A DNA stretch of 64,000 bases, taken from Salminus brasiliensis. Its lineage: Eukaryota; Chordata; Actinopteri; Characiformes; Bryconidae. The stretch spans positions 30,109,761 to 30,173,760 of the forward strand of contig NC_132878.1 in the NCBI RefSeq assembly GCF_030463535.1. The letters run 5' to 3'. Below the pieces are notes generated by a model, which saw only the letters and a program-made list of their open reading frames with translations, did no database searches and was not told the origin of the DNA. Shown one piece after another: positions 1 to 36,000 of this stretch (position 1 is the first letter of the stretch; each line of letters begins with the position of its first letter). Made by a program: the position numbers and the translations under genes.

Positions 1-3000
1 CAAACATTAGCTAATTGTGTGTGGTCATGATGCAATACATCAAGTGTCAATCAAAGAGTGATCTTTATTGTAAATCATAAGCTGAGAAGTATTTCCTTTT
101 ATAATTGTACACACATTTCTAAACATACAACCTTTTAACTATAATCTGTATGCATATTTAACTATGTTCCCTGGACCAGGACTCTTGTTGAGTCGTCGTC
201 TTCTCAACATAAGTTAATAATGGATATGGAAAGGACAAGAACTCTGAAACTAGAACTAAAGAACAAGCAAAGGAATCTCACTATAATAGTAGACAAGAGT
301 AGATATATTTGGTTTCCTCGTGCAAAATGACTAGATAAACATGTGTGTGTGGAGAAATTTAAGACTTAGTGTTTACTGAAAAATCCTTTCACTTGTTAAG
401 ACTAGAGTTCTTAGCAAACATGAAAATATGACCTGACCCCTAACAATAGATCAGCAAGTCCTCTCCAAAACTGACCTTTTAGATTTTACAAAGCATGTTT
501 TCTTTATTGTCTTCTCTTATCTTTTTTATGGAAATATTTTTAAAAGGTCACAGTGAACTGATCCAAGTGATGCTTCTGTTCTTCATATTTCTCATATTAT
601 TCATTTTCTTTCTTGTTTCAGTCACAGTTCAGCAACGTAGAGCTTGTTAAATATGTCATCGCAAAATGTCAGCACTTTCATACAGAGTCCAAATGGATCA
701 GAGGTGCAGACTGAGCTGTGGCAAAGCTCAGTGTGGGAAATTTACATCATAGATTTCACATTTGCTGTATTGTACTCCTTTAGCATATCCTAAAATCACA
801 CTATTAAACTTAAACAATAGTAATTTTTTATTATCCATTTATCTCCATTTATTGATGCATATTTCATATGCCTGTCCAATTGTTTTACACAGTTTACAGA
901 GATTTGATCATGGATTTATTGTTCATGGAGTTATTATTTCCAGCGGAAAGATTTGTTGAAGCTACTTTTTCATGCTCAGATGCAGCCAAACATTTTAAAA
1001 TAGGAAATTGCATTAATGAGTGTGATTAGAACTCTCTAATGTAAAATAGACACAATGTTTGGACTGATTTGTGTTTGTGGAACTACAGTGCCACACATTT
1101 GAGATCCAACAAAGATTCAGGAAAACACGATGCTTAATTCTAATTAAATTTGTTTTCCCAAGCATATCATTACTCTTGCCCAAAAACCTTGTATCTGCCA
1201 TTTTGGTGTTTTTGACATCATTAGAATCTGACAGTTGTTCTTTGCAGTGTGTCATTTTATCATTATTCGGCCAATGGGAAAGTAAAAAAATAACAAAAAT
1301 AAATAAGATCTTTTTACATTGACCTTCACTGAAGGTTTAGCAGATTTTTTCATTTGCTTGTGAACTTGGCATTGCGACATAAGAGGCATTTTTGTGGCAG
1401 TGATGATACATGTAATGGGCCTACTTCTGTGTGTCACAACTAAGAGTAATTATAGTTCATCTATGTTACCAAAAGATTACAGTATGCCTTGTGCTTTCTC
1501 AGTAATGTGACAAACAATCATGTGGCAAGTGGTTAGTAAAAGAGGTTCAATACAAAACCAATCCTAAACTAAAAAGTATTTACAGTGGTGATTCAGCATT
1601 GGTGCTGCAATTAAGTCCAAGACTAGGCTTAATTCATGGGAGAGAAAGACTAATAACATTTACTAGAACTTTCAGTTTTATCATAGTGTCCTGATGTACA
1701 TGCCAAATGTTTTCACATCATTTATCAAAAACCTGATTGACACATTCATCTAACTAGATCTGAATGTGAAGTGATGCTCCTGTTCTTATCTTTCTCGTTT
1801 TTCACCACTAGAGGGCAACAAAACTGTGAAGCTTGATACAATTACAGTTGCAAAAGGTCAGCACTTTCACACAGAGTCTAAATGGAGCAGAAGTGCAGAC
1901 CGAGCTGAGAGTGTGAGATGTAGGCAGATGTCCAGAACCAGCGAAGGCCTGTAGTATCAATGGTCTTTAATTGAGGCTCAACTGAGACTGCAATTCAGTG
2001 GAAGTTTGAGTTATGTCTAGTCTGTCCTGAAAGTCACTCCAGAACAACTTCCCCATTGTTCTACATGTAGTTGATCAGCCAAAACAGATGTGTCTCAGTA
2101 TTTTACTTGAATTAAAACAATAGTAGTTTATATGTCTCAAATTATTATTGTAAATTCCATATGACTGTCCTGCTATTTGACATAGAAGACTTTACAGACA
2201 TTAGACTTTTTGACATAATTAGAATCAGACAGCTGTTCTTTAAATTGTCATTTTATCCTGAATGGCCCATTAGAAATGCTTCAGAAGGACTTTGAACAAA
2301 TTCTTCTTACACTGACTTTTGTTGAAGGTAAAGAGGGGTTTCATTACCCAGTAAACTTGCCATTGGTGAATAGAGGGCATTTGTGTGACAGCAGCACTAC
2401 ATGTCATGGGCCTACGTCTGTGTGTCAGCAGCTAAGAGTAATTAAATAGCTCCTGGTAAACTACTAATAGATAACAGTGTGACTTATGCTTTCTCAATAA
2501 TTGGACAAATAACTGTAGGGCCATTAGTTAAAAGGGGTTCAATTCTTAAACAATCCTGAACTAAAAAGTATTTGCAATGCAGATTCAGCACTGACAGTGC
2601 AATGAAGTCCAAGACTGGACTTAATACATGGGAGAACAGTACTTACAATATTTACTAGAAATGCTCTGTTACTCAAAGTCATCTTTTAAAAACTTTAATT
2701 AATTAAAATGTCATTGATTTATTAAAATTAATGAAAATCTAAGTATTACCAAAACTCAAATATTCAGCCTATACTGAAGTACTTTACAAAAAGAATAAAA
2801 AGGACTTATCAACCAACTGTATCTCACATAACCGTGATCCTGAGTGTTAACATAGAGAGTCCTTATATACTATTTCAAGTGTTTTTTACGTTATGGTGTC
2901 ACTTTAGTTGGAGTGGTCCTCAAAAAATGAAATAAAGGTCAGGATTAGGACCAGGGTTAAAGTTAGGTTTTGCTTAATTGAAGTAACATATTAAGTCACT

Positions 3001-3965
3001 TTCAAGTAACATGTCAACATTAAATTTACTTAATGCCACAAAAGCTACAAAAGACATATTTTATCACATTATCATTCATAAACCAAGGTAAACACAAGGC
3101 CAATGCTCATGCCTCTACTTGTGTGTGCATGTGTGTCTATGTGAATACAGAGAGACGCAAGGTTGGTTAGGATTTCTTGAAATGTTATCAGATGCCAGAT
3201 CACGATTTCATGTTTGATTACATTTCAAGTGTAAAGAAGGGGCATTATTTTTCAGTATGTAACAGATTCAACATTCATAATGCTTCACTTAATTGCATTA
3301 TAAAGATATTGCTTGTGCTTAAGCATTTTGGGTAGTCTCTACAGTGACCCTGACCATTAAAAGAGGATAAGAAGAGGTATGAATGAATGCATTTGACACA
3401 GTGCACACAGGTGGGGTATACTCTTCTCTTTCCTGTTAGCTACATTAGCCTCATAAAAATATAGAGACACGCCTGTCTTGAATGATCAACTACATGTGGA
3501 AAATGTGGAAGTTGTTTAGGGGTGGCTTTCAGGGCAGACTAGACAAAACCAAAACTTCCACTAGACTGCAGTGTCAGTTGATCCTTGAATCAGGATCATT
3601 GTTGCTGTAGGCCTTAGCTGACATTGGAAAACTGGGCCTACATCTCACAGTCTTCTAAATGTGAGAAAGGTTTAAAGAAAAGTTTTGGTTGAGCTCTTTG
3701 TTTTAGTTGATTCCCTTGTTGCATGACCTAACTTGCTGCAACACTAATCATCAATTAACTGTTAAGGATAAACAGGCTGATGCAATATTGTGCCCAAGGA
3801 GTTAGTCTTAGGTTTCAGATGGACAAAATTAGATGAGAGTGTGAAGCAATAAGCTGTTGTGTCTTAACACCTTTGATTAGTCCGATACCTGTGAGAGGTG
3901 TTCCATCATTTAAGGTGAGAGGTGATAACTGGTCTCTAAGGCATTACTTTAGAAGCTTGTAAAGA
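1..3965 (+). repeat. Tandem array unit 0 (short variant, about 3.97 kb)
   Basis: This is the first visible copy of the long tandem repeat. It starts with the same bases (caaacattagctaattg) that recur at 3966, 8929, 13880 and 18868. It runs parallel to the following units but lacks about 1 kb: sequence equivalent to position 480 jumps straight to the segment that begins at 5445 in the next unit, so the internal duplication is absent. No open reading frame longer than 83 codons is present, and the short frames recur only because the DNA repeats. The left edge is the window edge, so the array probably extends further left. Confidence 0.9.
1805..1819 (+). promoter_or_regulatory. CTCF-like motif, unit 0
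   Basis: The sequence CCACTAGAGGGCAAC fits the vertebrate CTCF core CCASYAGRKGGCRS at 13 of 14 positions. In every copy it is preceded by a pyrimidine-rich stretch (ttctttctcgtttt type). The base match is seen directly; binding is inference. The pyrimidine tract followed by CAG-like bases could alternatively be a splice-acceptor-like relic. Confidence 0.5.
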
Positions 3966-4036
3966 CAAACATTAGCTAATTGTGTGTGGTCATGATGCAA
4001 TACATCAAGTGTCAGTCAAAGAGTGATCTTTATTGT

Positions 4037-5105
4037 AAATCATAAACTGAGAAGTATTTTCTTTTATAATTGTACACACATTTCTAAACGTACAACCTTT
4101 TAACTATAATCTGTATGCATATTTAACTATGTTCCCTGGACCAGGACTCATGTTGAGGGCTCTATATTCAAGCCTTCGAATTCTCTTCTCAACATAAGTT
4201 AATAATGGATATGGAAAGGACAAGAAGTCTGAAACTAGAACTAAAGAACAAGCAAAGGAATCTCACTATAATAGTAGACAAGAGTAGATATATTTGGTTT
4301 CCTCATGCAAAATGATTAGATAAACATGTGTGTGTGGAGAAATTTAAGATTTGGAGTTTACTGAAAAATCCTTTCACTTGTTAAGACTAGAGTTCTTAGC
4401 AAACATGAAAATATCACCTGACCCCTAACAATAGATAAGCAAATCCTCTCCAAAACTGACCTATTTTACTTGCATCTCTCTGTATTCACTCTCTCTCTCA
4501 CACTCACACCTTGTGGCCTTGTGTGGAGCTTGTTTTAAATGGATAACTTGTTTTAGGGATGGTTTACAGTATGAGATTAAAAATCTGTAATATAATCGGA
4601 AAGTCGTTTGTAAAATCATAAACTGAGAAGTATTTTCTTTTTTAATTGTACACACATTTCTAAATGTATAACCTTTTAACTATAATCTGAATGCATATTT
4701 GACTTAATTCCCTGGACCAGGACCCATGTTGAGGGCTCTATATTCAAGTCTTTAAATTCTCTTCTCAACATAAGTTAATAATGGATATGGAAAGGACAAG
4801 AAGTCTGAAACTTGAGAACAAGCAAAGGAATCTCACTATAATAGTAGATAAGAGTAGATATATTTGTTTTCCTCATGCAAAATGACTAGATTACCATGTG
4901 TGTGGAGAAAGATTTTGTGTTTACTGAAAAGTCCTTTCTCTTGTAAAGACTAGAGTTCTTAGCAAACATGAAAATATCACCTGACCCCTAACAATAGATC
5001 AGCAAATCCTCTCCAAAACTTACCTATTTTACTTACATCTCTCTGTATTCACTCTCTCACACACTCACACACACACACCTTGTGGCCTTGTGTGGACCTT
5101 GGGTG
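4037..5105 (+). repeat. Internal duplication inside the 4.96-kb unit (two about 500-bp copies, offset 576 bp)
   Basis: Within each full unit a block beginning aaatcataaactgagaag (4037) recurs at 4613. Both copies run through the same landmarks (ccctggaccagg, ggctctatattcaag, gaatctcactataatag) and end in similar CT/CA-rich tracts (ctgtattcactctctc, ccttgtggccttgtgtgg). The second copy is shorter and more diverged. Equivalent pairs occur in units 2, 3 and 4; unit 0 has only one copy. Confidence 0.85.
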
Positions 5106-6767
5106 TCAGCAATGCAAGTGAGTCCAGCTGGCCCAAACAAAGACTGTTTAAACTTTAAAATGTGACAAAAACACTGTACATCAGGATCTTCTCATTCAGA
5201 TAAATATTATAAATAAATATTTGAAGCTCTCTTTTTAGACACTCTGTGTTAACACTGAGAGGTACAGTTATGTGAAGTACAGTTATCTTAGTGTTAACAT
5301 AGTGTCCTAATATACATGTCAAGTGTTTTGATGTCATTTATGAAAAATTATTCACACTGACATGTCCCATTGCTAGTCTTTATCCCATCCAGCTTGAACA
5401 AGATTCCATAATACAAGAAATATAATGCTGAGAAATGTTCATAAAGATTTTACAAAGCATGTTTTCTTTATTGTCTCCTCTTATCTTTTTTATGGAAATA
5501 TTTTTAAAAGGTCACAGTGAACTGATCCAAGTGATGCTTCTGTTCTTCATATTTCTCATATTATTCATTTTCTTTCTTGTTTCAGTCACAGTTCAGCAAC
5601 GTAGAGCTTGTTAAATATATCATCGCAAAATGTCAGCACTTTCATACAGAGTCCAAATGGATCAGAGGTGCAGACTGAGCCGTGGGAAAGCTCAGTGTGG
5701 GAAATTTACATCATAGATTTCACATTTGCTGTATTGTACTCCTTTAGCATATCCTAAAATCACACTATTAAACTTAAACAATAGTAGTTTTTATTATCCA
5801 TTTATCTCCATTTATTGATGCATATTTCATATGCCTGTCCAATTGTTTTACACAGTTTACAGAGATTTGATCATGGATTTATTGTTCATGGAGTTATTAT
5901 TTCCAGCGGAAAGATTTGTTGAAGCTACTTTTTGATGCTCAGATGCAGTCAAACATTTTAAAATAGGAAATTGCATTAATGAGTGTGATTAGAACTCTCT
6001 AATGTAAAATAGACACAATGTTTGGACTGATTTGTGTTTGTGGAACTACAGTGCCACACATTTGAGATCCAACAAAGATTCAGGAAAACACGATGCTTAA
6101 TTCTAATTAAACTTGTTTTCCCAAGCATATCATTACTCTTGCCCAAAAACCTTGTATCTGCCATTTTGGTGTTTTTGACATCATTAGAATCTGACAGTTG
6201 TTCTTTGCAGTGTGTCATTTTATCATTATTTGGCCAATGGGAAAGTAAAAAAATAACAAAAATAAATAAGATCTTTTTACATTGACCTTCACTGAAGGTT
6301 TAGCAGATTTTTTCATTTGCTTGTGAACTTGGCATTGCGACATAAGAGGCATTTTTGTGGCAGTGATGATACATGTAATGGGCCTACTTCTGTGTGTCAC
6401 AACTAAGAGTAATTATAGTTCATCTATGTTACCAAAAGATTACAGTATGCCTTGTGCTTTCTCAGTAATGTGACAAACAATCATGTGGCAAGTGGTTAGT
6501 AAAAGAGGTTCAATACAAAACCAATCCTAAACTAAAAAGTATTTACAGTGGTGATTCAGCATTGGTGCTGCAATTAAGTCCAAGACTAGGCTTAATTCAT
6601 GGGAGAGAAAGACTAATAACATTTACTAGAACTTTCAGTTTTATCATAGTGTCCTGATGTACATGCCAAATGTTTTCACATCATTTATCAAAAACCTGAT
6701 TGACACATTCATCTAACTAGATCTGAATGTGAAGTGATGCTCCTGTTCTTATCTTTCTCGTTTTTCA

Positions 6768-6782
6768 CCACTAGAGGGCAAC
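6768..6782 (+). promoter_or_regulatory. CTCF-like motif, unit 1
   Basis: The 15 bases are identical to those in unit 0, at the equivalent position in the unit. Confidence 0.5.
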
Positions 6783-8928
6783 AAAACTGTGAAGCTTGAT
6801 ACATTTACCATTGCAAAAGGTCAGCACTTTCACACAGAGTCTAAATGGAGCAGAAGTGCAGACCGAGCTGAGAGTGTGAGATGTAGGCAGATGTCCAGAA
6901 CCAGCGAAGGCCTGTAGTATCAATGGTCTTTAATTGAGGCTCAACTGAGACTGCAATTCAGTGGAAGTTTGAGTTATGTCTAGTCTGTCCTGAAAGTCAC
7001 TCCAGAACAACTTCCCCATTGTTCTACATGTAGTTGATCAGCCAAAACAGATGTGTCTCAGTATTTTACTTGAATTAAAACAATAGTAGTTTATATGTCT
7101 CAAATTATTATTGTAAATTCCATATGACTGTCCTGCTATTTGACATAGAAGACTTTACAGACATTAGACTTTTTGACATAATTAGAATCAGACAGCTGTT
7201 CTTTAAATTGTCATTTTATCCTGAATGGCCCATTAGAAATGCTTCAGAAGGACTTTGAACAAATTCTTCTTACACTGACTTTTGTTGAAGGTAAAGAGGG
7301 GTTTCATTACCCAGTAAACTTGCCATTGGTGAATAGAGGGCATTTGTGTGACAGCAGCACTACATGTCATGGGCCTACGTCTGTGTGTCAGCAGCTAAGA
7401 GTAATTAAATAGCTCCTGGTAAACTACTAATAGATAACAGTGTGACTTATGCTTTCTCAATAATTGGACAAATAACTGTAGGGCCATTAGTTAAAAGGGG
7501 TTCAATTCTTAAACAATCCTGAACTAAAAAGTATTTGCAATGCAGATTCAGCACTGACAGTGCAATGAAGTCCAAGACTGGACTTAATACATGGGAGAAC
7601 AGTACTTACAATATTTACTAGAAATGCTCTGTTACTCAAAGTCATCTTTTAAAAACTTTAATTAATTAAAATGTCATTGATTTATTAAAATTAATGAAAA
7701 TCTAAGTATTACCAAAACTCAAATATTCAGCCTATACTGAAGTACTTTACAAAAAGAATAAAAAGGACTTATCAACCAACTGTATCTCACATAACCGTGA
7801 TCCTGAGTGTTAACATAGAGAGTCCTTATATACTATTTCAAGTGTTTTTTACGTTATGGTGTCACTTTAGTTGGAGTGGTCCTCAAAAAATGAAATAAAG
7901 GTCAGGATTAGGACCAGGGTTAAAGTTAGGTTTTGCTTAATTGAAGTAACATATTAAGTCACTTTCAAGTAACATGTCAACATTAAATTTACTTAATGCC
8001 ACAAAAGCTACAAAAGACATATTTTATCACATTATCATTCATAAACCAAGGTAAACACAAGGCCAATGCTCATGCCTCTACTTGTGTGTGCATGTGTGTC
8101 TATGTGAATACAGAGAGACGCAAGGTTGGTTAGGATTTCTTGAAATGTTATCAGATGCCAGATCACGATTTCATGTTTGATTACATTTCAAGTGTAAAGA
8201 AGGGGCATTATTTTTCAGTATGTAACAGATTCAACATTCATAATGCTTCACTTAATTGCATTATAAAGATATTGCTTGTGCTTAAGCATTTTGGGTAGTC
8301 TCTACAGTGACCCTGACCATTAAAAGAGGATAAGAAGAGGTATGAATGAATGCATTTGACACAGTGCACACAGGTGGGGTATACTCTTCTCTTTCCTGTT
8401 AGCTACATTAGCCTCATAAAAATATAGAGACACGCCTGTCTTGAATGATCAACTACATGTGGAAAATGTGGAAGTTGTTTAGGGGTGGCTTTCAGGGCAG
8501 ACTAGACAAAACCAAAACTTCCACTAGACTGCAGTGTCAGTTGATCCTTGAATCAGGATCATTGTTGCTGTAGGCCTTAGCTGACATTGGAAAACTGGGC
8601 CTACATCTCACAGTCTTCTAAATGTGAGAAAGGTTTAAAGAAAAGTTTTGGTTGAGCTCTTTGTTTTAGTTGATTCCCTTGTTGCATGACCTAATTTGCT
8701 GCAACACTAATCATCAATTAACTGTTAAGGATAAACAGGCTGATGCAATATTGTGCCCAAGGAGTTAGTCTTAGGTTTCAGATGGACAAAATTAGATGAG
8801 AGTGTGAAGCAATAAGCTGTTGTGTCTTAACACCTTTGATTAGTCCGATACCTGTGAGAGGTGTTCCATCATTTAAGGTGAGAGGTGATAACTGGTCTCT
8901 AAGGCATTACTTTAGAAGCTTGTAAAGA

Positions 8929-11900
8929 CAAACATTAGCTAATTGTGTGTGGTCATGATGCAATACATCAAGTGTCAGTCAAAGAGTGATCTTTATTGTA
9001 AATCATAAACTGAGAAGTATTTTCTTTTATAATTGTACACACATTTCTAAACGTACAACCTTTTAACTATAATCTGTATGCATATTTAACTATGTTCCCT
9101 GGACCAGGACTCATGTTGAGGGCTCTATATTCAAGCCTTCGAATTCTCTTCTCAACATAAGTTAATAATGGATATGGAAAGGACAAGAAGTCTGAAACTA
9201 GAACTAAAGAACAAGCAAAGGAATCTCACTATAATAGTAGACAAGAGTAGATATATTTGGTTTCCTCATGCAAAATGATTAGATAAACATGTGTGTGTGG
9301 AGAAATTTAAGATTTGGAGTTTACTGAAAAAGATTAGAGTTCTTAGCAAACATGAAAATATCACCTGACCCCTAACAATAGATAAGCAAATCCTCTCCAA
9401 AACTGACCTATTTTACTTGCATCTCTCTGTATTCACTCTCTCTCTCACACTCACACCTTGTGGCCTTGTGTGGAGCTTGTTTTAAATGGATAACTTGTTT
9501 TAGGGATGGTTTACAGTATGAGATTAAAAATCTGTAATATAATCGGAAAGTCGTTTGTAAAATCATAAACTGAGAAGTATTTTCTTTTTTAATTGTACAC
9601 ACATTTCTAAATGTATAACCTTTTAACTATAATCTGAATGCATATTTGACTTAATTCCCTGGACCAGGACCCATGTTGAGGGCTCTATATTCAAGTCTTT
9701 AAATTCTCTTCTCAACATAAGTTAATAATGGATATGGAAAGGACAAGAAGTCTGAAACTTGAGAACAAGCAAAGGAATCTCACTATAATAGTAGATAAGA
9801 GTAGATATATTTGTTTTCCTCATGCAAAATGACTAGATTACCATGTGTGTGGAGAAAGATTTTGTGTTTACTGAAAAGTCCTTTCTCTTGTAAAGACTAG
9901 AGTTCTTAGCAAACATGAAAATATCACCTGACCCCTAACAATAGATCAGCAAATCCTCTCCAAAACTTACCTATTTTACTTACATCTCTCTGTATTCACT
10001 CTCTCACACACTCACACACACACACCTTGTGGCCTTGTGTGGACCTTGGGTGTCAGCAATGCAAGTGAGTCCAGCTGGCCCAAACAAAGACTGTTTAAAC
10101 TTTAAAATGTGACAAAAACACTGTACATCAGGATCTTCTCATTCAGATAAATCTCACATATTTGAAGCTCTCTTTTTAGACACTCTGTGTTAACACTGAG
10201 AGGTACAGTTATGTGAAGTACAGTTATCTTAGTGTTAACATAGTGTCCTAATATACATGTCAAGTGTTTTGATGTCATTTATGAAAAATTATTCACACTG
10301 ACATGTCCCATTGCTAGTCTTTATCCCATCCAGCTTGAACAAGATTCCATAATACAAGAAATATAATGCTGAGAAATGTTCATAAAGATTTTACAAAGCA
10401 TGTTTTCTTTATTGTCTCCTCTTATCTTTTTTATGGAAATATTTTTAAAAGGTCACAGTGAACTGATCCAAGTGATGCTTCTGTTCTTCATATTTCTCAT
10501 ATTATTCATTTTCTTTCTTGTTTCAGTCACAGTTCAGCAACGTAGAGCTTGTTAAATATATCATCGCAAAATGTCAGCACTTTCATACAGAGTCCAAATG
10601 GATCAGAGGTGCAGACTGAGCCGTGGGAAAGCTCAGAGTGGGAAATTTACATCATAGATTTCACATTTGCTGTATTGTACTCCTTTAGCATATCCTAAAA
10701 TCACACTATTAAACTTAAACAATAGTAGTTTTTATTATCCATTTATCTCCATTTATTGATGCATATTTCATATGCCTGTCCAATTGTTTTACACAGTTTA
10801 CAGAGATTTGATCATGGATTTATTGTTCATGGAGTTATTATTTCCAGCGGAAAGATTTGTTGAAGCTACTTTTTGATGCTCAGATGCAGTCAAACATTTT
10901 AAAATAGGAAATTGCATTAATGAGTGTGATTAGAACTCTCTAATGTAAAATAGACACAATGTTTGGACTGATTTGTGTTTGTGGAACTACAGTGCCACAC
11001 ATTTGAGATCCAACAAAGATTCAGGAAAACACGATGCTTAATTCTAATTAAACTTGTTTTCCCAAGCATATCATTACTCTTGCCCAAAAACCTTGTATCT
11101 GCCATTTTGGTGTTTTTGACATCATTAGAATCTGACAGTTGTTCTTTGCAGTGTGTCATTTTATCATTATTCGGCCAATGGGAAAGTAAAAAAATAACAA
11201 AAATAAATAAGATCTTTTTACATTGACCTTCACTGAAGGTTTAGCAGATTTATTCATTTGCTTGTGAACTTGGCATTGCGACATAAGAGGCATTTTTGTG
11301 GCAGTGATGATACATGTAATGGGCCTACTTCTGTGTGTCACAACTAAGAGTAATTATAGTTCATCTATGTTACCAAAAGATTACAGTATGCCTTGTGCTT
11401 TCTCAGTAATGTGACAAACAATCATGTGGCAAGTGGTTAGTAAAAGAGGTTCAATACAAAACCAATCCTAAACTAAAAAGTATTTACAGTGGTGATTCAG
11501 CATTGGTGCTGCAATTAAGTCCAAGACTAGGCTTAATTCATGGGAGAGAAAGACTAATAACATTTACTAGAACTTTCAGTTTTATCATAGTGTCCTGATG
11601 TACATGCCAAATGTTTTCACATCATTTATCAAAAACCTGATTGACACATTCATCTAACTAGATCTGAATGTGAAGTGATGCTCCTGTTCTTATCTTTCTC
11701 GTTTTTCACCACTAGAGGGCAACAAAACTGTGAAGCTTGATACATTTACCATTGCAAAAGGTCAGCACTTTCACACAGAGTCTAAATGGAGCAGAAGTGC
11801 AGACCGAGCTGAGAGTGTGAGATGTAGGCAGATGTCCAGAACCAGCGAAGGCCTGTAGTATCAATGGTCTTTAATTGAGGCTCAACTGAGACTGCAATTC

Positions 11901-13879
11901 AGTGGAAGTTTGAGTTATGTCTAGTCTGTCCTGAAAGTCACTCCAGAACAACTTCCCCATTGTTCTACATGTAGTTGATCAGCCAAAACAGATGTGTCTC
12001 AGTATTTTACTTGAATTAAAACAATAGTAGTTTATATGTCTCAAATTATTATTGTAAATTCCATATGACTGTCCTGCTATTTGACATAGAAGACTTTACA
12101 GACATTAGACTTTTTGACATAATTAGAATCAGACAGCTGTTCTTTAAATTGTCATTTTATCCTGAATGGCCCATTAGAAATGCTTCAGAAGGACTTTGAA
12201 CAAATTCTTCTTACACTGACTTTTGTTGAAGGTAAAGAGGGGTTTCATTACCCAGTAAACTTGCCATTGGTGAATAGAGGGCATTTGTGTGACAGCAGCA
12301 CTACATGTCATGGGCCTACGTCTGTGTGTCAGCAGCTAAGAGTAATTAAATAGCTCCTGGTAAACTACTAATAGATAACAGTGTGACTTATGCTTTCTCA
12401 ATAATTGGACAAATAACTGTAGGGCCATTAGTTAAAAGGGGTTCAATTCTTAAACAATCCTGAACTAAAAAGTATTTGCAATGCAGATTCAGCACTGACA
12501 GTGCAATGAAGTCCAAGACTGGACTTAATACATGGGAGAACAGTACTTACAATATTTACTAGAAATGCTCTGTTACTCAAAGTCATCTTTTAAAAACTTT
12601 AATTAATTAAAATGTCATTGATTTATTAAAATTAATGAAAATCTAAGTATTACCAAAACTCAAATATTCAGCCTATACTGAAGTACTTTACAAAAAGAAT
12701 AAAAAGGACTTATCAACCAACTGTATCTCACATAACCGTGATCCTGAGTGTTAACATAGAGAGTCCTTATATACTATTTCAAGTGTTTTTTACGTTATGG
12801 TGTCACTTTAGTTGGAGTGGTCCTCAAAAAATGAAATAAAGGTCAGGATTAGGACCAGGGTTAAAGTTAGGTTTTGCTTAATTGAAGTAACATATTAAGT
12901 CACTTTCAAGTAACATGTCAACATTAAATTTACTTAATGCCACAAAAGCTACAAAAGACATATTTTATCACATTATCATTCATAAACCAAGGTAAACACA
13001 AGGCCAATGCTCATGCCTCTACTTGTGTGTGCATGTGTGTCTATGTGAATACAGAGAGACGCAAGGTTGGTTAGGATTTCTTGAAATGTTATCAGATGCC
13101 AGATCACGATTTCATGTTTGATTACATTTCAAGTGTAAAGAAGGGGCATTATTTTTCAGCATGTAACAGATTCAACATTCATAATGCTTCACTTAATTGC
13201 ATTATAAAGATATTGCTTGTGCTTAAGCATTTTGGGTAGTCTCTACAGTGACCCTGACCATTAAAAGAGGATAAGAAGAGGTATGAATGAATGCATTTGA
13301 CACAGTGCACACAGGTGGGGTATACTCTTCTCTTTCCTGTTAGCTACATTAGCCTCATAACTTCAATGCAAAATATAGAGACACGCCTGTCTTGAATGAT
13401 CAACTACATGTGGAAAATGTGGAAGTTGTTTAGGGGTGGCTTTCAGGGCAGACTAGACAAAACCAAAACTTCCACTAGACTGCAGTGTCAGTTGATCCTT
13501 GAATCAGGATCATTGTTGCTGTAGGCCTTAGCTGACATTGGAAAACTGGGCCTACATCTCACAGTCTTCTAAATGTGAGAAAGGTTTAAAGAAAAGTTTT
13601 GGTTGAGCTCTTTGTTTTAGTTGATTCCCTTGTTGCATGACCTAACTTGCTGCAACACTAATCATCAATTAACTGTTAAGGATAAACAGGCTGATGCAAT
13701 ATTGTGCCCAAGGAGTTAGTCTTAGGTTTCAGATGGACAAAATTAGATGAGAGTGTGAAGCAATAAGCTGTTGTGTCTTAACACCTTTGATTAGTCCGAT
13801 ACCTGTGAGAGGTGTTCCATCATTTAAGGTGAGAGGTGATAACTGGTCTCTAAGGCATTACTTTAGAAGCTTGTAAAGA
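8929..13879 (+). repeat. Tandem array unit 2 (full, 4,951 bp)
   Basis: This full unit is collinear with unit 1. Private differences include the loss of about 20 bases near 9330, in the run following tttactgaaaaa. At about 10,150 it carries the short variant gataaatctcacatatttg that it shares with unit 4. Near its end (about 13,360) it has an extra cttcaatgca that is shared with unit 3. Confidence 0.92.
11709..11723 (+). promoter_or_regulatory. CTCF-like motif, unit 2
   Basis: Identical 15 bases at the equivalent position of unit 2. Confidence 0.5.
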
Positions 13880-16800
13880 CAAACATTAGCTAATTGTGTG
13901 TGGTCATGATGCAATACATCAAGTGTCAGTCAAAGAGTGATCTTTATTGTAAATCATAAACTGAGAAGTATTTTCTTTTATAATTGTACACACATTTCTA
14001 AACGTACAACCTTTTAACTATAATCTGTATGCATATTTAACTATGTTCCCTGGACCAGGACTCATGTTGAGGGCTCTATATTCAAGCCTTCGAATTCTCT
14101 TCTCAACATAAGTTAATAATGGATATGGAAAGGACAAGAAGTCTGAAACTAGAACTAAAGAACAAGCAAAGGAATCTCACTATAATAGTAGACAAGAGTA
14201 GATATATTTGGTTTCCTCATGCAAAATGATTAGATAAACATGTGTGTGTGGAGAAATTTAAGATTTGGAGTTTACTGAAAAATCCTTTCACTTGTTAAGA
14301 CTAGAGTTCTTAGCAAACATGAAAATATCACCTGACCCCTAACAATAGATAAGCAAATCCTCTCCAAAACTGACCTATTTTACTTGCATCTCTCTGTATT
14401 CACTCTCTCTCTCACACTCACACCTTGTGGCCTTGTGTGGAGCTTGTTTTAAATGGATAACTTGTTTTAGGGATGGTTTACAGTATGAGATTAAAAATCT
14501 GTAATATAATCGGAAAGTCGTTTGTAAAATCATAAACTGAGAAGTATTTTCTTTTTTAATTGTACACACATTTCTAAATGTATAACCTTTTAACTATAAT
14601 CTGAATGCATATTTGACTTAATTCCCTGGACCAGGACCCATGTTGAGGGCTCTATATTCAAGTCTTTAAATTCTCTTCTCAACATAAGTTAATAATGGAT
14701 ATGGAAAGGACAAGAAGTCTGAAACTTGAGAACAAGCAAAGGAATCTCACTATAATAGTAGATAAGAGTAGATATATTTGTTTTCCTCATGCAAAATGAC
14801 TAGATTACCATGTGTGTGGAGAAAGATTTTGTGTTTACTGAAAAGTCCTTTCTCTTGTAAAGACTAGAGTTCTTAGCAAACATGAAAATATCACCTGACC
14901 CCTAACAATAGATCAGCAAATCCTCTCCAAAACTTACCTATTTTACTTACATCTCTCTGTATTCACTCTCTCACACACTCACACACACACACCTTGTGGC
15001 CTTGTGTGGACCTTGGGTGTCAGCAATGCAAGTGAGTCCAGCTGGCCCAAACAAAGACTGTTTAAACTTTAAAATGTGACAAAAACACTGTACATCAGGA
15101 TCTTCTCATTCAGATAAATATTATAAATAAATATTTGAAGCTCTCTTTTTAGACACTCTGTGTTAACACTGAGAGGTACAGTTATGTGAAGTACAGTTAT
15201 CTTAGTGTTAACATAGTGTCCTAATATACATGTCAAGTGTTTTGATGTCATTTATGAAAAATTATTCACACTGACATGTCCCATTGCTAGTCTTTATCCC
15301 ATCCAGCTTGAACAAGATTCCATAATACAAGAAATATAATGCTGAGAAATGTTCATAAAGATTTTACAAAGCATGTTTTCTTTATTGTCTCCTCTTATCT
15401 TTTTTATGGAAATATTTTTAAAAGGTCACAGTGAACTGATCCAAGTGATGCTTCTGTTCTTCATATTTCTCATATTATTCATTTTCTTTCTTGTTTCAGT
15501 CACAGTTCAGCAACGTAGAGCTTGTTAAATATATCATCGCAAAATGTCAGCACTTTCATACAGAGTCCAAATGGATCAGAGGTGCAGACTGAGCCGTGGG
15601 AAAGCTCAGAGTGGGAAATTTACATCATAGATTTCACATTTGCTGTATTGTACTCCTTTAGCATATCCTAAAATCACACTATTAAACTTAAACAATAGTA
15701 GTTTTTATTATCCATTTATCTCCATTTATTGATGCATATTTCATATGCCTGTCCAATTGTTTTACACAGTTTACAGAGATTTGATCATGGATTTATTGTT
15801 CATGGAGTTATTATTTCCAGCGGAAAGATTTGTTGAAGCTACTTTTTGATGCTCAGATGCAACCAAACATTTTAAAATAGGAAATTGCATTAATGAGTGT
15901 GATTAGAACTCTCTAATGTAAAATAGACACAATGTTTGGACTGATTTGTGTTTGTGGAACTACAGTGCCACACATTTGAGATCCAACAAAGATTCAGGAA
16001 AACACGATGCTTAATTCTAATTAAATTTGTTTTCCCAAGCATATCATTACTCTTGCCCAAAAACCTTGTATCTGCCATTTTGATGTTTTTGACATCATTA
16101 GAATCTGACAGTTGTTCTTTGCAGTGTGTCATTTTATCATTATTTGGCCAATGGGAAAGTAAAAAAATAACAAAAATAAATAAGATCTTTTTACATTGAC
16201 CTTCACTGAAGGTTTAGCAGATTTTTTCATTTGCTTGTGAACTTGGCATTGCGACATAAGAGGCATTTTTGTGGCAGTGATGATACATGTAATGGGCCTA
16301 CTTCTGTGTGTCACAACTAAGAGTAATTATAGTTCATCTATGTTACCAAAAGATTACAGTATGCCTTGTGCTTTCTCAGTAATGTGACAAACAATCATGT
16401 GGCAAGTGGTTAGTAAAAGAGGTTCAATACAAAACCAATCCTAAACTAAAAAGTATTTACAGTGGTGATTCAGCATTGGTGCTGCAATTAAGTCCAAGAC
16501 TAGGCTTAATTCATGGGAGAGAAAGACTAATAACATTTACTAGAACTTTCAGTTTTATCATAGTGTCCTGATGTACATGCCAAATGTTTTCACATCATTT
16601 ATCAAAAACCTGATTGACACATTCATCTAACTAGATCTGAATGTGAAGTGATGCTCCTGTTCTTATCTTTCTCGTTTTTCACCACTAGAGGGCAACAAAA
16701 CTGTGAAGCTTGATACATTTACCATTGCAAAAGGTCAGCACTTTCACACAGAGTCTAAATGGAGCAGAAGTGCAGACCGAGCTGAGAGTGTGAGATGTAG

Positions 16801-21800: not shown

Positions 21801-22134
21801 AACCAGCGAAGGCCTGTAGTATCAATGGTCTTTAATTGAGGCTCAACTGAGACTGCAATTCAGTGGAAGTTTGAGTTATGTCTAGTCTGTCCTGAAAGTC
21901 ACTCCAGAACAACTTTCCCATTGTTCTACATGTAGTTGATCAGCCAAAACAGATGTGTCTCAGTATTTTACTTGAAAATTAAACTTGAATTAAAACAATA
22001 GTAGTTTATATGTCTCAAATTATTATTGTAAATTTCACATGAGTGTCCTGCTATTTGACATAGAAGACTTTACAGACATTAGACTTTTTGACATAATTAG
22101 AATCGGACAGCTGTTCTTTAAATTGTCATTTTAT
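18868..22134 (+). repeat. Tandem array unit 4 (3' truncated, about 3.27 kb)
   Basis: This is the last unit of the regular array. Similarity to units 1-3 continues to about 22,134, where the sequence switches from the expected tcctgaatggcccattag to tcatggatgataatctg. Differences from other units increase toward its 3' end (for example near 21,600-21,660 and 21,975). That fits the edge of a homogenised array, where exchange is less frequent. Confidence 0.88.
21670..21684 (+). promoter_or_regulatory. CTCF-like motif, unit 4
   Basis: The motif is unchanged here although flanking bases have diverged (ttccac for ttcac just upstream, aaacttg for aagcttg downstream). Confidence 0.5.
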
Positions 22135-22595
22135 CATGGATGATAATCTGATATTTTAGTGACACATATTTGAGTAAGGAGTGGTCTCTTGTAAATGATA
22201 AATAAACTCTTATTATATCAGTGTCAATAGCATGTAGGTGCAGTAGCAGCAGTGAAGCATCTAAATACATTATAAATATTTGTTTTGTTGATGCATTATT
22301 GACATTAGGTACATTTAATGTTGACATGTTACTTGAAGATGACTTAATATGTTACTTCCATTAAGCAAAACCTAAATTTAACCCTGGTCCTAATCCTGAC
22401 CTCGATCCAAAACCTAATCATATTCCTAACTCTAACCATTATCCAAAACCTATACCTAACCCCCACTCTGCCCTTTGATCTGAATCTAGTCCAGTTAAGC
22501 TCCAGTTCCAGACCGGTGGAAGCAGCAGGTCTTTAACAGCTGGTTGCGGATGTTGAGGTGGTCTGTATTAGACCTGTTAGATGATCAGTGATCTC
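22135..22595. repeat. Junction segment with an inverted array fragment and degenerate CCTAA-like tract
   Basis: This stretch links the regular array to the rearranged part. Roughly 22,300-22,420 is the reverse complement of the unit region near 2,935-3,030 (ccaggg, ttaggttttgcttaa). Positions 22,370-22,470 hold a degenerate run of cctaa/taacc words on the + strand. The rest (22,138-22,300) resembles 30,774-30,815. No gene is seen. Confidence 0.6.
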
Positions 22596-22668: not shown

Positions 22669-22777
22669 GGCCCATTACACGTATCGCCCAGTGCCAAGTT
22701 TCCAAGAAAAGGAAAAAAACAGCTTTTCTTGAGAAACTTGGCATTGGAAGATATGATGCATTTGCATGTAATGGGCC
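22669..22777. repeat. Fold-back inverted repeat (hairpin), copy A
   Basis: The left arm begins ggcccattaca and contains cagtgccaagtttc and aagaaaa. The right arm mirrors it as ttttctt, gaaacttggcattgg and tgtaatgggcc. The arms are about 50 bases around a loop of roughly 10 A-rich bases, with a small asymmetry near the ends. The right arm alone recurs many times in the array family (for example near 1,350-1,420), so this copy may be a fold-back of two monomer ends or a small MITE-like element. Confidence 0.65.
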
Positions 22778-23441: not shown

Positions 23442-23456
23442 CCACTAGAGGGCAAC
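23442..23456 (+). promoter_or_regulatory. CTCF-like motif, duplication copy A (first)
   Basis: CCACTAGAGGGCAAC, preceded by a long pyrimidine tract, in a segment only distantly related to the array units. Confidence 0.45.
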
Positions 23457-23954: not shown

Positions 23955-23969
23955 CCACTAGAGGGCAGC
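23955..23969 (+). promoter_or_regulatory. CTCF-like motif, duplication copy A (second)
   Basis: CCACTAGAGGGCAGC fits the CTCF core at all 14 positions. It lies 513 bases after the first site of copy A. Confidence 0.5.
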
Positions 23970-24840: not shown

Positions 24841-25319
24841 ATCATGAACAGGCCAATAGAAATGCTCCAGAAGGACTTTGAACAAATTCTTCTTACACTG
24901 ACTTTTGTTGAAGGTAAAGAGGGGTTTCCTTACCCGGTAAACTTGCCATTGGTGAATAGAAGGCATTTGTGTGACAGCAACACTACATGTCATGGGCCTA
25001 CGTCTGTGTGTCAGCAGCTAAGAGTAATTAAATAGCTCCTGGTAAACTACTAATAGATAACAGTGTGACTTATGCTTTCTCAATAATTGGACAAATAACT
25101 GTAAGGCCATTAGTTAAAAGGGGTTCAATTCTTAAACAATCTTGAACTAAAAAGTATTTGCAATGCAGATTCAGCACTGACAGTGCAATGAAGTCCAAGA
25201 CTGGACTTAATACATGGGAGAACAGCACTTACAATATTTACTAGAAATTCTCTGTTACTCGAAGTCATCTTATTAATTAAAATACATTAATTAAAATGTC
25301 ATTGATTTATTAAAATTAA
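24841..25319 (+). repeat. Array-family fragment (equivalent to unit positions about 2,265-2,720)
   Basis: The sequence from atcatgaacaggccaatag onward follows the unit segment around tccagaaggactttgaac, gtaaacttgccattgg and catgggcctacgtctg. It breaks at about 25,319, where it joins, by deletion, the segment equivalent to unit position 3,466. No gene is present. Confidence 0.75.
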
Positions 25320-28489: not shown

Positions 28490-30770
28490 TTGTAAACTTG
28501 GCATTGGGAGATATCAGACATTGTCGATATATGTAATGGGCCTACTTCTGTGTGTCAGCAGCTAAGAGTAATTAAAGTTCATCTGTCTTACCAAAAGATT
28601 ACAGTATACTTTGTGCTTGCTTAGCAATGTAACAAAAAAACAAATGGCCAGAAGTTAGTACAAGGGGTTCAATACTAAACCAATCCTAAACTAAAAAGTA
28701 TTTACAGTGATTCAGCATTGGCACTGTAATTAAGTCCAAGACCCAGCTTAATCTGTGGGAGAGAAGAACTAACAAAATTTCCTGTTACTTGAATCTATCT
28801 CCTGAAACCATAAATTGTTTGAATAAAATATTCTCAGTTTATTAAAAATCAATAAAGTACTAAAACACTATTTTAGTCAATCACACTATTAGTAGACCCC
28901 CATAATAGAACCATTGAGAAAACCATGAGAACACCACTGACGTCTTTCCCAGAACCTGCTGTCTTTCATGGAAAAGCAAACTCATTTGGTGTGGTGGTTC
29001 GAAGGTCACAGGTCGAGTGTTTACTTTGTCAAAAATATTCAAAATTTTCACAAAACTCAAATATGTAATGCCTAACTGAGTACTTTGAAGGCAGGGTGTT
29101 AAAGGGACTTATCAACCAACTGTACCTCTCAGTGTTAACACAGAGTGTCTAAAAACAGACCTTCAAATATGTGGGATTTATCTGAATGAGAAGATCCTGA
29201 TGTACAGTGTTTTAGTCACATTTTAAAGTTTAAACAGTCTTCGTTTGGGCCAGCTGGACTCACTTGCATTGCTGACACCAAGGTCCACACAAAGCCACAA
29301 GGTGTGTGTGTGAGTGTGTGAGAGAGTGAATACAGAGAGATGTAAGTAAAATAGGTCAGTTTTGGAGAGGATTTGCTGATCTATTGTTGGGGGTCAGGTC
29401 ATATTTTCATGTTTGCTAAGAACTCTAGTCTTAAAAAGTGAAAGGACTTTTCAGTAAACACTAAATCTTAAATTTCTCCACACACACATGTTTATCTAGT
29501 CATTTTGCATGAGGAAACCAAATATATCTACTCTTGTCTACTATTATAGTGAGATTCCTTTGCTTGTTCTTTAGTTCTAGTTTCAGACTTCTTATCCTTT
29601 CCATATCCATTATTAACTTATGTTGAGAAGAGAATTTAAAGACTTGAATATAGAGCCCTCAACATGGGTCCTGGTCCAGGGAATATAGTCAAGTATGCAT
29701 ACAGATTATAGTTAAAAGGTTGTACGTTTAGAAATGTGTGTACAATTATAAAATAAAATACTTCTCAGTTTATGATTTACAATAAAGATCACTCTTTGAC
29801 TGACACTTGATGTATTGCATCATGACCACACACAATTAGCAAATGCTTGTCTTTACAAGCTATGCAAGTTATGCCTTAGAGACCAGTTATCACCTCTCAC
29901 CTTAAATGATGGAACACCTCTCACAGGTATCGGACTAATCAAAGGTGTTAAGACACAACAGCTTATTGCTTCACACTCTCATCTAATTTTATCCATCTGA
30001 AACCTAAGACTAACTCCTTGGGCACAATATTGCATCAGCCTGTTTATCCTTAACAGTTAATTGATGATTAGTGTTACAGCAAATTAGGTCATGCAACAAG
30101 GCAATCAACTAAAACAAAGAGCTCAACCATAACTTTTCTTTATACCTTTCTCACATGTAGAAGACTGTGAGATGTAGGCCCAGTTTTCCAATGTCAGCTA
30201 AGGCCTACAGCAACAATGATCTTCAATTGAGGCTCAACCGACACTGCAGTCTAGTGGACAATTAAGTTTTGTCTAATTTGAAAGCCACCCCTAAACAACT
30301 TTCCCATTTTCTACATGTAGCTGAGCAGTCAGAACAGGTGTGTCGTTGTATTTTGCACTGAAGATATGAGGCTAATGTAGGTAACAGGAAAGAGATGAGT
30401 ATACCCCACCTGTGTGCATTGTGTAAACATTACACATTAACTGTACTGAGATGTTATTGTGAGAGCATATCATTGAAAATTTAAACAAATCTAAATGCAA
30501 ATAAAAGAAGTGCTGTGTTCAAGCTTACAGGATTTTACATCTGTTGTATACTTAAAAAACTTGCCACTTCCCTACACTCCAGATCTAATCACACACAAAG
30601 TTGACGACATATCAATAAATCCTGGCCAAACCTAACAAATTTTTCCTTGCGTTTCTCTTTATTCACATAGACACACGTGCACTCACACACAGAGGCATGC
30701 ATATTGGCCTTGTGTTTACCTTGGTTCAAGTAATGCAAGTGATGCCAGCTGACCTGGATAAAGACTGTTT
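28490..30770 (-). repeat. Right arm of the large imperfect palindrome
   Basis: This array-family sequence lies in reverse orientation. Unit landmarks appear as complements, for example ggtcctggtccagg near 29,667, catgaccacacacaattagc near 29,820 and ctgtttatccttaacag near 30,040. It continues past the left-arm homology to about 30,770 with the complement of the unit region around 3,070-3,180, so the left arm has lost material at the 25,319 junction. Confidence 0.8.
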
Positions 30771-30999: not shown

Positions 31000-31682
31000 T
31001 ATTTCTGTGTGTCAGCAGCTAAGAGGAATTAAAGTTCATCTGTCATACCAAAAGATTACACTGAAAACTTCAGTTGTTTGATTAAAGCAGTGTATTAAAA
31101 TCAATGAACATCCTAAAAACATACTATTAGCAAACCTTTGTAGCAGAACCAATTAAATTCCATAAGAACACCACTGAGTTCTCTCCCAGAACCCATTGTC
31201 TTAACAGAAAAGCAAACTTATTTGGTGTTGTGGTTAGAAGGTCACAGTTTGTTTGCTTTTTACTAAAAAGGATGTATCAACTAACTGAGTTAGCATATTG
31301 TCCTGATAAACATGTCAAGTGTTTTAATGTCATTTATGAAAAATGAGTCACACTGAAATTACACATTATCACATTAGTCACATTACTAATCTTTATCCTG
31401 TCCAGCTTTTTTGTTGCCACCAAGGTCAACAAGGCTGACAACCATATATGTGTGTTTATTATAAATGTGTGTTTGTGTGTTTGTGTTAATATAGAGAGGT
31501 GCAAGCAATAATTGGTCAAGTTTGGAGAGCAATAATGACCTAGATTTTGCTAATCAGATTTCCTTTGTTGTTATCTCCCCTTGTCTTTTTTAGAGAAATA
31601 TGAAGAAAGACCACCTTCATCTGTCTAGATCTAAATGTGAAGTGAAGCCCCTGTTCTTTTTTCTGTTCTTTCTCGTTTTACA

Positions 31683-31697
31683 CCACTAGAGGGCAAC
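31683..31697 (+). promoter_or_regulatory. CTCF-like motif, duplication copy B (first)
   Basis: CCACTAGAGGGCAAC, in the position matching 23,442 in copy A. Confidence 0.45.
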
Positions 31698-32730: not shown

Positions 32731-32745
32731 CCACTAGAGGGCAGC
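32731..32745 (+). promoter_or_regulatory. CTCF-like motif, duplication copy B (second)
   Basis: CCACTAGAGGGCAGC, matching the site at 23,955, with a full fit to the CTCF core. Spacing from the first copy B site is 1,048 bases because copy B keeps the 500-base segment lost from copy A. Confidence 0.5.
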
Positions 32746-33620: not shown

Positions 33621-36000
33621 CACAATGTTTGGACTGATGTGTGTGAACTACAGTGCCACACATTTGAGATCAAACAAGGATCAGGAAAATATGATGCTGA
33701 ACTCTTTGGTCTTTTTGAACTCTTTTCTGATCTTTTTGGCAGAATTAGAATCTGAAAGTTTTTTTATTTGGCCAATAGAAATCCACAAAACCAAAATAAA
33801 ATCCTTTTACATTGATATTTATTGAACGCTTAGCAGTTTTTTTATTTTTTCGTTTCTTGTAAACTTGGCATTGGGAGATATGAGGCATTTGCGTGGCAGT
33901 GATGGTGACATGTAATGGGCCTACTTCTGCAAATGTATTTTCAGTGGCAATTCAGCAATAGAAATTTCCTGAAAACTTAAATAGTTTGATTAAAATATCA
34001 TACACACACTTTTCCAAGTGTTAATGTAATTTATGAAAAATTTGTCACACTAAAATGTCACATTGACAGTCTTTATCCTGTCCAGCTGAAGTCACTTTTT
34101 GTTTGCCACTAGCAACCATGTTTATGAATGTGTGTGGTGTGTGTGCGCGTATGTGAATACAGAGAGGTGCAAGCAAGACAGAGGTCAGGTCAAAATTTCA
34201 TGTTTGATTAGATCTTGAGTATAAAGAAGTAAAAGGAAATTTCTTCTTGCAAACACAATTACCTACCCATTTTGTTTGAGGAAAACATATATTTTCTACT
34301 ATTACAGTGAGATTTATTAGCTTGTTCTTGAGTGCTTGCTTCAAACCTTTTGTCCCTTCCATAATCCATAATTCATTTATCTCAAGAATATGGGTCCTGG
34401 TCCAGGGAACATAGTCAAATATGCATACAGATTATAGTTAAAAGGTTGTACGTTTAGAAATGTGTGTACAATTATAAAAGAAAATACTTCTCAGTTTATG
34501 GTTTACAATAAAGATCACTCTTTGACTGACACTTGATGTATTGCATCATGACCACACACAATTAGCTAATGCTTGTCTTTACAAGCTTCTAAAGTCATGC
34601 CTTAGAGACCAGTTATCACCTCTCACCTTAAATGATGGAACACCTCTCACAGGTATCGGACTAATCAAAGGTGTTAAGACACAACAGCTAATTATTTCAC
34701 ACTCTCATCTAATTTTGTCCATCTGAAACCTAAGACTAACTCCTTGGGCACAATATTGCATCAGCCTGTTTATCCTTAACAGTTAATTGATGATTAGTGT
34801 TGCAGCAAATTAGGTCATGCAACAAGGGAATCAACTAAAACAAAGAGCTCAACCAAAACTTTTCTTTAAACCTCTCTCATATTTAGATAACTGTGAGATG
34901 TAGGCCCAGTTTTCCAATGTCAGCTAAGGCCTACAGCAACAATGATCCTTAATTGAGCCCACTAGTGTGCATTGTTAAAAATACATTCATTAAACATTAC
35001 ACTTTAACTGTACTAGGATATTGTTAAAAGGACATTTGTCATTTAACAGCTGTTTAAAACCTATTACACCCCAAGGCTTATTACACACTAAGGTACAATA
35101 ATTTAGAAGTGGTGATAGAAATTTGCAATAACACCTTAAGTCTGCAGCCCATAGTTTTTTTGAGAAGTTAAGCTGTGTTTATTATTATTGTTTATTATTT
35201 CCAGTCAGATGCCACCTGGCATTGCTAACTATATCACACACAGTAGCTTTACAGGAAAAGGAAAATGGTCTTAACCATTGTGCCATTGCTCTTTGTCCAG
35301 TCTATACACAATGTCACATTTTTTAAAAGGGTTGAGACTTGACACGGTTTGACTGTGTGACTATTTAGGTGTTCTGTTTGCACCATGCTAATTGATTGGC
35401 ATTATGCATCCATCACTTTTGAACTACATTAGCATTGTGTCTCCAGTGTAAAACTAAACAAACAAAAAAACGTTTATGACTAAATTTGGGATATGTTTTA
35501 AAAATTACATATTTTTTTTCAAACCACTTTAAATAAATAAATGATGCCGTAGTTTAAACAATATGAAATAATACATATTACATTCTGTCACAACCTTTGG
35601 TAAAAGAGGTCTATATAGATTAATGAACCTAGATTTTACAAGCATATTTTTCATTGTTATTATGTCCCCTAGTTTTTTTATGAAAAATTTAAATAAGGTC
35701 TCAGTGAACTGACCTGAATGACCACATTCATCTGAATAGATCTGAATGTGAAGTGAAGCTCCTGTTCTTTTTCTTTCTCATTTCACACCACTAGAGGGCA
35801 GCAAAATTGCACAGTTTGCTGCGTTTATCACTACAGGTCAGCACTTGCATCCAGATTGGTGAAGTGGAGCCTAGTTTGAGAGATTTACATCATACATTTC
35901 TCACTCACTTTATTGTGGTTCTTTTAGTATATCACAGCATTTCTGATCTCAGTATGTCTATATTTTGTATCACTGTTCAACTCTTTTAAAGGTGCACGTA
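33621..36000. repeat. Decayed array-family sequence, mixed orientation
   Basis: The start (gactgatgtgtgtgaactac) resembles the unit around 1,060-1,330. About 34,390-34,960 is reverse-oriented array sequence (landmarks ggtcctggtccaggg, catgaccacacacaattagc, ctgtttatccttaacag). Positions 35,690-36,000 resemble 23,860-24,140 on the + strand. Roughly 35,000-35,690 is AT-rich with only patchy similarity to 32,100-32,620. No gene is present. Confidence 0.65.
35788..35802 (+). promoter_or_regulatory. CTCF-like motif nearest to the receptor cluster
   Basis: CCACTAGAGGGCAGC, with a full fit to the core. It is the last of ten + strand copies and lies about 1.3 kb from the 3' end of the TAAR1-like gene. 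Confidence 0.5.

What the first reader, a model, noticed from the sequence alone, without database searches (positions are those of the whole stretch)
1805..35802. Ten CTCF-like motifs, all in the same orientation, one per array unit and in the decayed copies
CCACTAGAGGGCA(A/G)C occurs at 1805, 6768, 11709, 16682, 21670, 23442, 23955, 31683, 32731 and 35788, always on the + strand. Flanking sequence in the decayed copies has changed a lot but the motif has not. It matches the known CTCF core CCASYAGRKGGCRS (14 of 14 in three copies, 13 of 14 in seven). A repeat that spreads oriented CTCF sites next to a monogenically expressed receptor cluster could act as an insulator or loop anchor. This is the observation in the window I would follow first.
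Basis: partly seen in the sequence, partly recalled or inferred. Interest (0 to 1): 0.75.

Follow-up and report, generated by a model that had tools for sequence, protein, structure and literature searches.

The report
CTCF-motif repeat array inside TAAR cluster
A fish genome carries, inside a cluster of amine-receptor genes, a block of locally duplicated DNA with ten near-identical sequences that look like docking sites for the genome-folding protein CTCF, all facing the same way; duplication explains their number and direction, and whether they separate the two halves of the gene cluster can be tested.

Summary
The ten motifs are real, where stated, all on +, and strong: the ten best CTCF-matrix hits in the window, p at most 3e-7 (matrix recalled from memory). 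CTCF grammar is widespread in this genome: 4603 matches to CCASYAGRKGGCRSYV against 19 for the reversed pattern. But ten is not ten events. They are four lineages of one local repeat, found only at this locus in 1.07 Gb, so number and orientation follow from duplication. The motif is better kept than its downstream flank, not clearly better than its upstream flank. A run of 11 same-strand CTCF-type words in a TRIM family 4 Mb away shows that duplication makes such runs elsewhere. New: the array lies inside the TAAR cluster, in a 40-kb gap between TAAR12/13-like genes and a TAAR1-like gene, and points at the latter. Best reading: genuine candidate CTCF sites multiplied by a macrosatellite-like repeat, probably bound, possibly a directional boundary like DXZ4. 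Insulation is unproven. New member of a known kind; interest 0.5.

The parts
1805..1819 (+). CTCF-like motif, lineage A, unit 1
   Evidence: p 5.9e-8
6768..6782 (+). CTCF-like motif, lineage A, unit 2
   Evidence: p 5.9e-8
11709..11723 (+). CTCF-like motif, lineage A, unit 3
   Evidence: p 5.9e-8
16682..16696 (+). CTCF-like motif, lineage A, unit 4
   Evidence: p 5.9e-8
21670..21684 (+). CTCF-like motif, lineage A, partial unit 5
   Evidence: p 5.3e-8
23442..23456 (+). CTCF-like motif, lineage B copy 1
   Evidence: p 2.9e-7
23955..23969 (+). CTCF-like motif, lineage C copy 1
   Evidence: p 3e-8
31683..31697 (+). CTCF-like motif, lineage B copy 2
   Evidence: p 2.9e-7
32731..32745 (+). CTCF-like motif, lineage C copy 2
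   Evidence: p 3e-8
35788..35802 (+). CTCF-like motif, lineage D
   Evidence: p 4.7e-8
487..809 (+). homologous copy without motif (lineage E, unit 1)
5451..5773 (+). homologous copy without motif (lineage E, unit 2)
10392..10713 (+). homologous copy without motif (lineage E, unit 3)
15365..15686 (+). homologous copy without motif (lineage E, unit 4)
20347..20668 (+). homologous copy without motif (lineage E, unit 5)
481..22142 (+). tandem array: four full units of 4.94-4.98 kb (481-5443, 5444-10385, 10386-15358, 15359-20340) and a partial fifth
   Evidence: self-comparison; full units 99.5-99.8% identical
1..36000 (.). whole repeat complex, which continues about 2.7 kb left of the window
   Evidence: the 10 and the 22 genome matches of the two flank queries all lie in this locus
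28531..30343 (-). inverted copy of 25319-27133; it holds no copy of the motif
37078..38127 (-). TAAR1-like receptor gene, right neighbour of the array
   Evidence: TAAR1 390 bits, TAAR13c 320 bits
40074..59337 (.). four more intact TAAR ORFs of the right block (40074, 44487, 48949, 58273)
   Evidence: 7tm_1, TAAR fingerprint

Best explanation
A noncoding repeat element held one good CTCF recognition site. Local duplication, first old and then recent, built a complex of about 39 kb with 15 long copies, ten of which carry the site, all in one orientation. Each of the ten most likely can bind CTCF (inferred from sequence). The complex fills the 40-kb gap between a left TAAR block (TAAR12/13-like and more distant genes) and a right block that begins with a TAAR1-like gene. 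All sites read rightwards, so under the loop-extrusion rule the array would stall cohesin arriving from the right and serve as left anchor and boundary of the right block. Shown: sites, lineages, orientation, confinement to one locus, gene context. Inferred: binding, stalling, insulation. Number and orientation are by-products of duplication and are not in themselves evidence of selection.
For: Ten best matrix hits of the window, p 3e-8 to 2.9e-7 (up to 4.4e-7 with the regional base composition). CTCF consensus 4603 against 19 in this genome. Four lineages whose flanks are 70-85% identical keep 14 of 15 motif columns. Only sites with p<1e-6 between -56 kb and +82 kb. Two TAAR blocks either side. 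Precedents: Dxz4 (PMC5899087, passages), tandem CTCF sites in protocadherin clusters (PMC7087399, abstract).
Against: Five of 15 copies lost the motif. The upstream flank is nearly as conserved. Another oriented run lies in a tandem TRIM family, as expected of passive carriage. The convergent partners at 89929 and 99216 are identical in their 19 bases and flank transposable-element-like ORFs. The TAAR left/right split has weak support, 74/56. No binding or contact data; the matrix is recalled.
Confidence: 0.4

Rival explanations
1. Passive passengers: the repeat multiplied by unequal crossing-over in a fast-duplicating gene cluster and carried a CTCF-like word along. CTCF may bind some copies, without consequence for the receptors.
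For: Copy number and orientation are shared by other words of the repeat (98 of 4941 15-mers). 5 of 15 copies lost the motif. Conservation over the upstream flank is not significant when gaps are left out. A similar run in a TRIM family.
Against: The most invariant 15-column stretch of the alignment, 15 of 15, overlaps the motif. Matrix scores stay high in all four motif lineages.
Confidence: 0.45
2. Dispersed transposable element bearing a CTCF motif, as in zebrafish SINE3-1a or HATN9_DR.
For: CTCF sites in fish and lamprey repeats are published (PMC9341505, passages; PMC5504073, section 11).
Against: 373 bp around copy D and 396 bp around unit 2 match only this locus (the tool calls such counts lower bounds). 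Only 7 of 132 outside copies of the 15-mer share the next three bases, AAA, against 10 of 10 inside.
Confidence: 0.04
3. Another function of the conserved core, such as a receptor enhancer, with the CTCF likeness secondary.
For: A block upstream of the motif is nearly as conserved as the motif. Teleost TAAR enhancers are unknown; those of the mouse were not found in zebrafish (PMC8213717, passages).
Against: No match to the two simple Ebf-type patterns tried in 64 kb (a crude test). The CTCF match is far above the window's background.
Confidence: 0.08

Closest known systems
DXZ4/Dxz4 macrosatellite of the mammalian X chromosome
   Same: Kilobase-scale tandem unit confined to one locus; CTCF motif in the unit; motifs in tandem orientation in mouse, 14 copies (PMC5899087, passages).
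   Different: GC-rich, 61-65%, with many CpG (PMC3218863, passages) against 35% GC here; 10-100 copies in human; CTCF binding and orientation-dependent contacts were measured there, not here.
Tandem CTCF sites of the clustered protocadherin genes
   Same: A row of CTCF sites in a cluster of receptor-type genes with stochastic choice (PMC7087399, abstract).
   Different: There insulation was shown by deletion; here the sites sit in one intergenic repeat between gene blocks.
CTCF-bearing repeats of fish and lamprey (SINE3-1a, HATN9_DR, hAT-Tip100 #274)
   Same: A repeat carries the CTCF motif; the lamprey hAT peaks held motifs without CpG, as here.
   Different: Those are dispersed families; this one is confined to one locus.
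Oriented CTCF-type run in a TRIM family of the same genome (C1:26.07-26.23 Mb)
   Same: 11 identical CTCF-type words on one strand in what looks like a tandem family.
   Different: The one site looked at lies between ORFs with PRY/SPRY and TRIM coiled-coil matches, so within a gene family; here the repeat shows no protein-family match in the one array ORF of at least 100 aa.

Membership tests
CTCF binding site | strong match to the CTCF matrix | tested here: met
   10 of 10, p at most 2.9e-7 (matrix recalled)
CTCF binding site | occupancy in vivo | not testable with these tools
   no ChIP or ATAC data at hand
CTCF binding site | motif kept better than its flanks | tested here: inconclusive
   better than downstream, not clearly better than upstream; 5 of 15 copies lost it
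DXZ4-type CTCF macrosatellite (works like) | kilobase-scale tandem units confined to one locus | tested here: met
DXZ4-type CTCF macrosatellite (works like) | one CTCF motif per unit, all in one orientation | tested here: met
   5 of 5 units and 5 older copies, all +
DXZ4-type CTCF macrosatellite (works like) | GC- and CpG-rich unit | tested here: not met
   34.5-35.6% GC in six 6-kb windows
DXZ4-type CTCF macrosatellite (works like) | CTCF binding and orientation-dependent contacts | not testable with these tools
   needs ChIP and Hi-C
CTCF-bearing transposable element | dispersed copies elsewhere in the genome | tested here: not met

The most novel reading that the evidence does not exclude
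A lineage-specific macrosatellite grew at the border between the TAAR12/13-like block and the TAAR1-led block and became a directional CTCF boundary that shields the TAAR1-like gene and its neighbours from the olfactory enhancers of the other block: a receptor-cluster counterpart of DXZ4, and a physical candidate for the proposed insulation of TAAR1.
Probability: 0.22. Interest if true: 0.75.

Novelty: new member of a known kind. Interest (0 to 1): 0.5.

Why it matters
TAAR1 is reported as not expressed in the nose in any species examined, unlike other TAARs (PMC8032801, passages), and one paper suggests in passing that its domain is insulated from the olfactory TAAR enhancers (PMC8890504, passage). 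The mouse enhancers were not found in zebrafish (PMC8213717, passages). A bank of oriented CTCF motifs beside a TAAR1-like gene gives that suggestion a concrete, deletable piece of DNA, and would show how tandem duplication can build a boundary inside a receptor cluster. A search for TAAR1, CTCF, insulated and olfactory together found no paper in the held library, which lacks most subscription journals.

Tried and rejected
Dispersed-element origin: rejected. Two of the four outside sites compared (L002, L004) resemble the array slightly beyond the 15-mer; this looks like chance, since 7 of 132 outside copies are followed by AAA. The weaker words CCACTAGACTGCAGT and TCACTACAGGTCAGC (3 mismatches) were not counted as motifs: the first lies, by eye, in a different part of the repeat, the second 40 bp downstream of the motif in lineages C and D. 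Ebf-type patterns: none. Rfam: nothing at gathering score. The exact word in papers: 4 papers, unrelated by title and start of abstract. One gapped pattern in viral contigs, and a second in prokaryote and viral contigs: nothing, as expected for fish DNA. PMC3491370 and PMC8213819: my search terms had no hits in them. TAAR tree: left/right split needs one change, but support is 74/56 and long branches are flagged, so 'class border' is inference. A planned control pattern (CCACTAGAGGGCARCTTT) did not complete and was dropped.
Full report
What is there. The ten CCACTAGAGGGCARC words are at the stated coordinates, all on +, with 14 of 14 or 13 of 14 matches to CCASYAGRKGGCRS. Scored with the CTCF matrix MA0139.1, recalled from memory and not from a call, they are the ten best hits of the window on either strand, p 3e-8 to 2.9e-7; the next hit has p 4.5e-6. 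The consensus means something in this genome: CCASYAGRKGGCRSYV occurs 2311 + 2292 times in 1.066 Gb, against 7 + 12 for the reversed pattern. The exact word CCACTAGAGGGCARC occurs 72 + 70 times against 0 + 4, and 10 of those 142 lie in this stretch.

What carries them. Self-comparison shows a complex of diverged direct and inverted copies over about window 1-36000, continuing about 2.7 kb to the left. Its youngest part is a tandem array of four full units and a partial fifth; the full units are 99.5-99.8% identical, with 30 variable columns of 4990. The other five motifs are in older copies: two B copies (their segments 95.8% identical), two C copies (95.0%) and one D copy. So the ten motifs represent four lineages. 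A motif-masked profile finds 15 long copies: the ten, plus one more in each array unit (lineage E) that lacks the motif. In the alignment, E agrees with the other lineages at 6-7 of 13 aligned motif letters, and the best matrix score there is 0.2 bits. Which state is ancestral was not tested. Some pieces of the repeat are inverted, but no exact motif is on -.

Is the motif kept specially? Taking one copy for each of the four motif lineages, 14 of 15 motif columns are invariant. In the 60 columns upstream it is 35 of 44 ungapped columns, downstream 26 of 55. Fisher one-sided p: 0.21 against upstream, 0.001 against downstream, 0.012 against both; if gap columns count as changed, 0.008, 0.0004 and 0.001. 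With 100 columns a side: 0.14, 0.0005 and 0.008 without gap columns. The most invariant 15-column stretch (15 of 15) overlaps the motif, but stretches with 14 of 15 also lie in an upstream and a downstream block. If binding alone were selected, positions that CTCF tolerates should vary like the flanks; 2 of 11 tolerant and 0 of 8 intolerant positions vary, which fits either view. Identity among the array units says little, since they hardly differ. Choosing copies by the motif and then noting that the motif is conserved is circular; with lineage E included, 6 of 13 ungapped motif columns are invariant.

Number and orientation. In unit 2, 98 of 4941 15-mers have ten or more copies at up to one mismatch, all on +, in 27 intervals, one of which is the motif. 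Four lineages on one strand has probability 0.125. These properties belong to the repeat. The same genome offers a parallel: of 18 copies of CCACCAGAGGGCAGCG, all 11 on + lie within C1:26.07-26.23 Mb. The first lies between an ORF with PRY and SPRY domains and ORFs matching the TRIM coiled coil; the other ten were not looked at.

Not a dispersed mobile element. 373 bp around copy D match ten places in the genome, the ten motif copies. 396 bp around the unit-2 motif match 22 places, all within C1:30109258-30145615. The tool warns that such counts are lower bounds. Outside the locus, 7 of 132 copies of the 15-mer are followed by AAA, against 10 of 10 inside.

Where it lies. Over 264 kb (70 kb left, window, 130 kb right) I took 28 intact receptor ORFs of at least 280 aa at places that match the window's TAARs: 12 left of the array and 16 right. 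Of these, 23 carry the TAAR fingerprint as I recall it, 4 only a looser 7TM pattern, and 1 neither; broken TAAR pieces were left out. The array fills the gap between -2799 (3' end of a + strand gene) and 37078 (3' end of a - strand gene). Against solved structures, the left neighbour fits TAAR13a best (341 bits; TAAR1 320; no TAAR12 appeared in the listing), the gene at -14704 is clearly TAAR13-like (TAAR13e 556, TAAR1 324), the far-left gene at -66247 fits weakly (TAAR13e 219), and the right neighbour is TAAR1-like (390; TAAR13c 320). The gene at 48949 also fits TAAR1 best (308 bits), so the label TAAR1 for the right neighbour is likely, not certain. The tree puts left and right genes on two sides of one branch with weak support, 74/56. 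'Border between TAAR classes' is therefore an inference.

How it could work. At p<1e-6 the 264 kb hold 18 sites: the ten of the array and -63468 +, -56045 +, 81841 +, 89929 -, 99216 -, 108476 +, 157873 -, 159702 +. The array sites are the only ones from -56 kb to +82 kb. By the convergent rule (PMC5899087, passages; which strand counts as forward is recalled), + sites on the left pair with - sites on the right, so the array would anchor loops over the right block, which starts with the TAAR1-like gene. Two candidate partners, 89929 and 99216, are identical in their 19 bases and flank ORFs of transposable-element type, so they may have no role. Precedents: Dxz4's one-way CTCF bank directs contacts (PMC5899087, passages), and tandem CTCF sites insulate in protocadherin clusters (PMC7087399, abstract). 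Binding, stalling and insulation are not shown here.

Relation to what is known. If it works, it works like DXZ4, but it is not DXZ4: it is AT-rich (35% GC), small, and in a fish receptor cluster. CTCF sites in fish repeats are known (zebrafish SINE3-1a with 1016 and HATN9_DR with 647 bound sites inferred from ATAC footprints, PMC9341505, passages; lamprey hAT-Tip100, PMC5504073, section 11), but in dispersed families. The CTCF motif is reported as alike in lamprey, chicken and mammals (PMC5504073, passages). That TAAR1 is not nasal, and that its domain may be insulated, is in print (PMC8032801 and PMC8890504, passages); I found no paper joining TAAR1, CTCF, insulated and olfactory.

Verdict. 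The most likely truth is a set of genuine candidate CTCF sites multiplied by local duplication, with a fair but untested chance of acting as a directional boundary inside the TAAR cluster.

Noticed in passing
1197, 6160, 11101, 16074 (+): A YY1-type word GCCATNTTG (recalled consensus) occurs once in four of the five array units, about 0.6 kb before the CTCF motif; the fifth unit has a changed last base. 3 further matches in the window, all on -.
   Followed up: partly
window's genome, C1:26073637-26227111 (L049 is the first site): 11 identical CTCF-type words CCACCAGAGGGCAGCG, all on +, in 153 kb; the first lies between PRY/SPRY and TRIM coiled-coil ORFs, so in what looks like a tandem TRIM family.
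   Followed up: partly
89929-99234 in window coordinates (right of the window): Two identical CTCF-type hits on - either side of transposable-element-like ORFs, perhaps a CTCF motif in a pair of LTRs.
   Followed up: no
36030-36246: A SINE-like stretch with tRNA-like words (by eye) just right of the last motif; similar stretches lie in the left flank.
   Followed up: no
22682-22753: Short hairpin: 21-nt arms, 86% complementary, 30 nt apart, in the older part of the repeat.
   Followed up: no
61655-62488 (-): Two neighbouring ORFs that read like pieces of a transposase by eye; no Pfam match at E 0.001.
   Followed up: no
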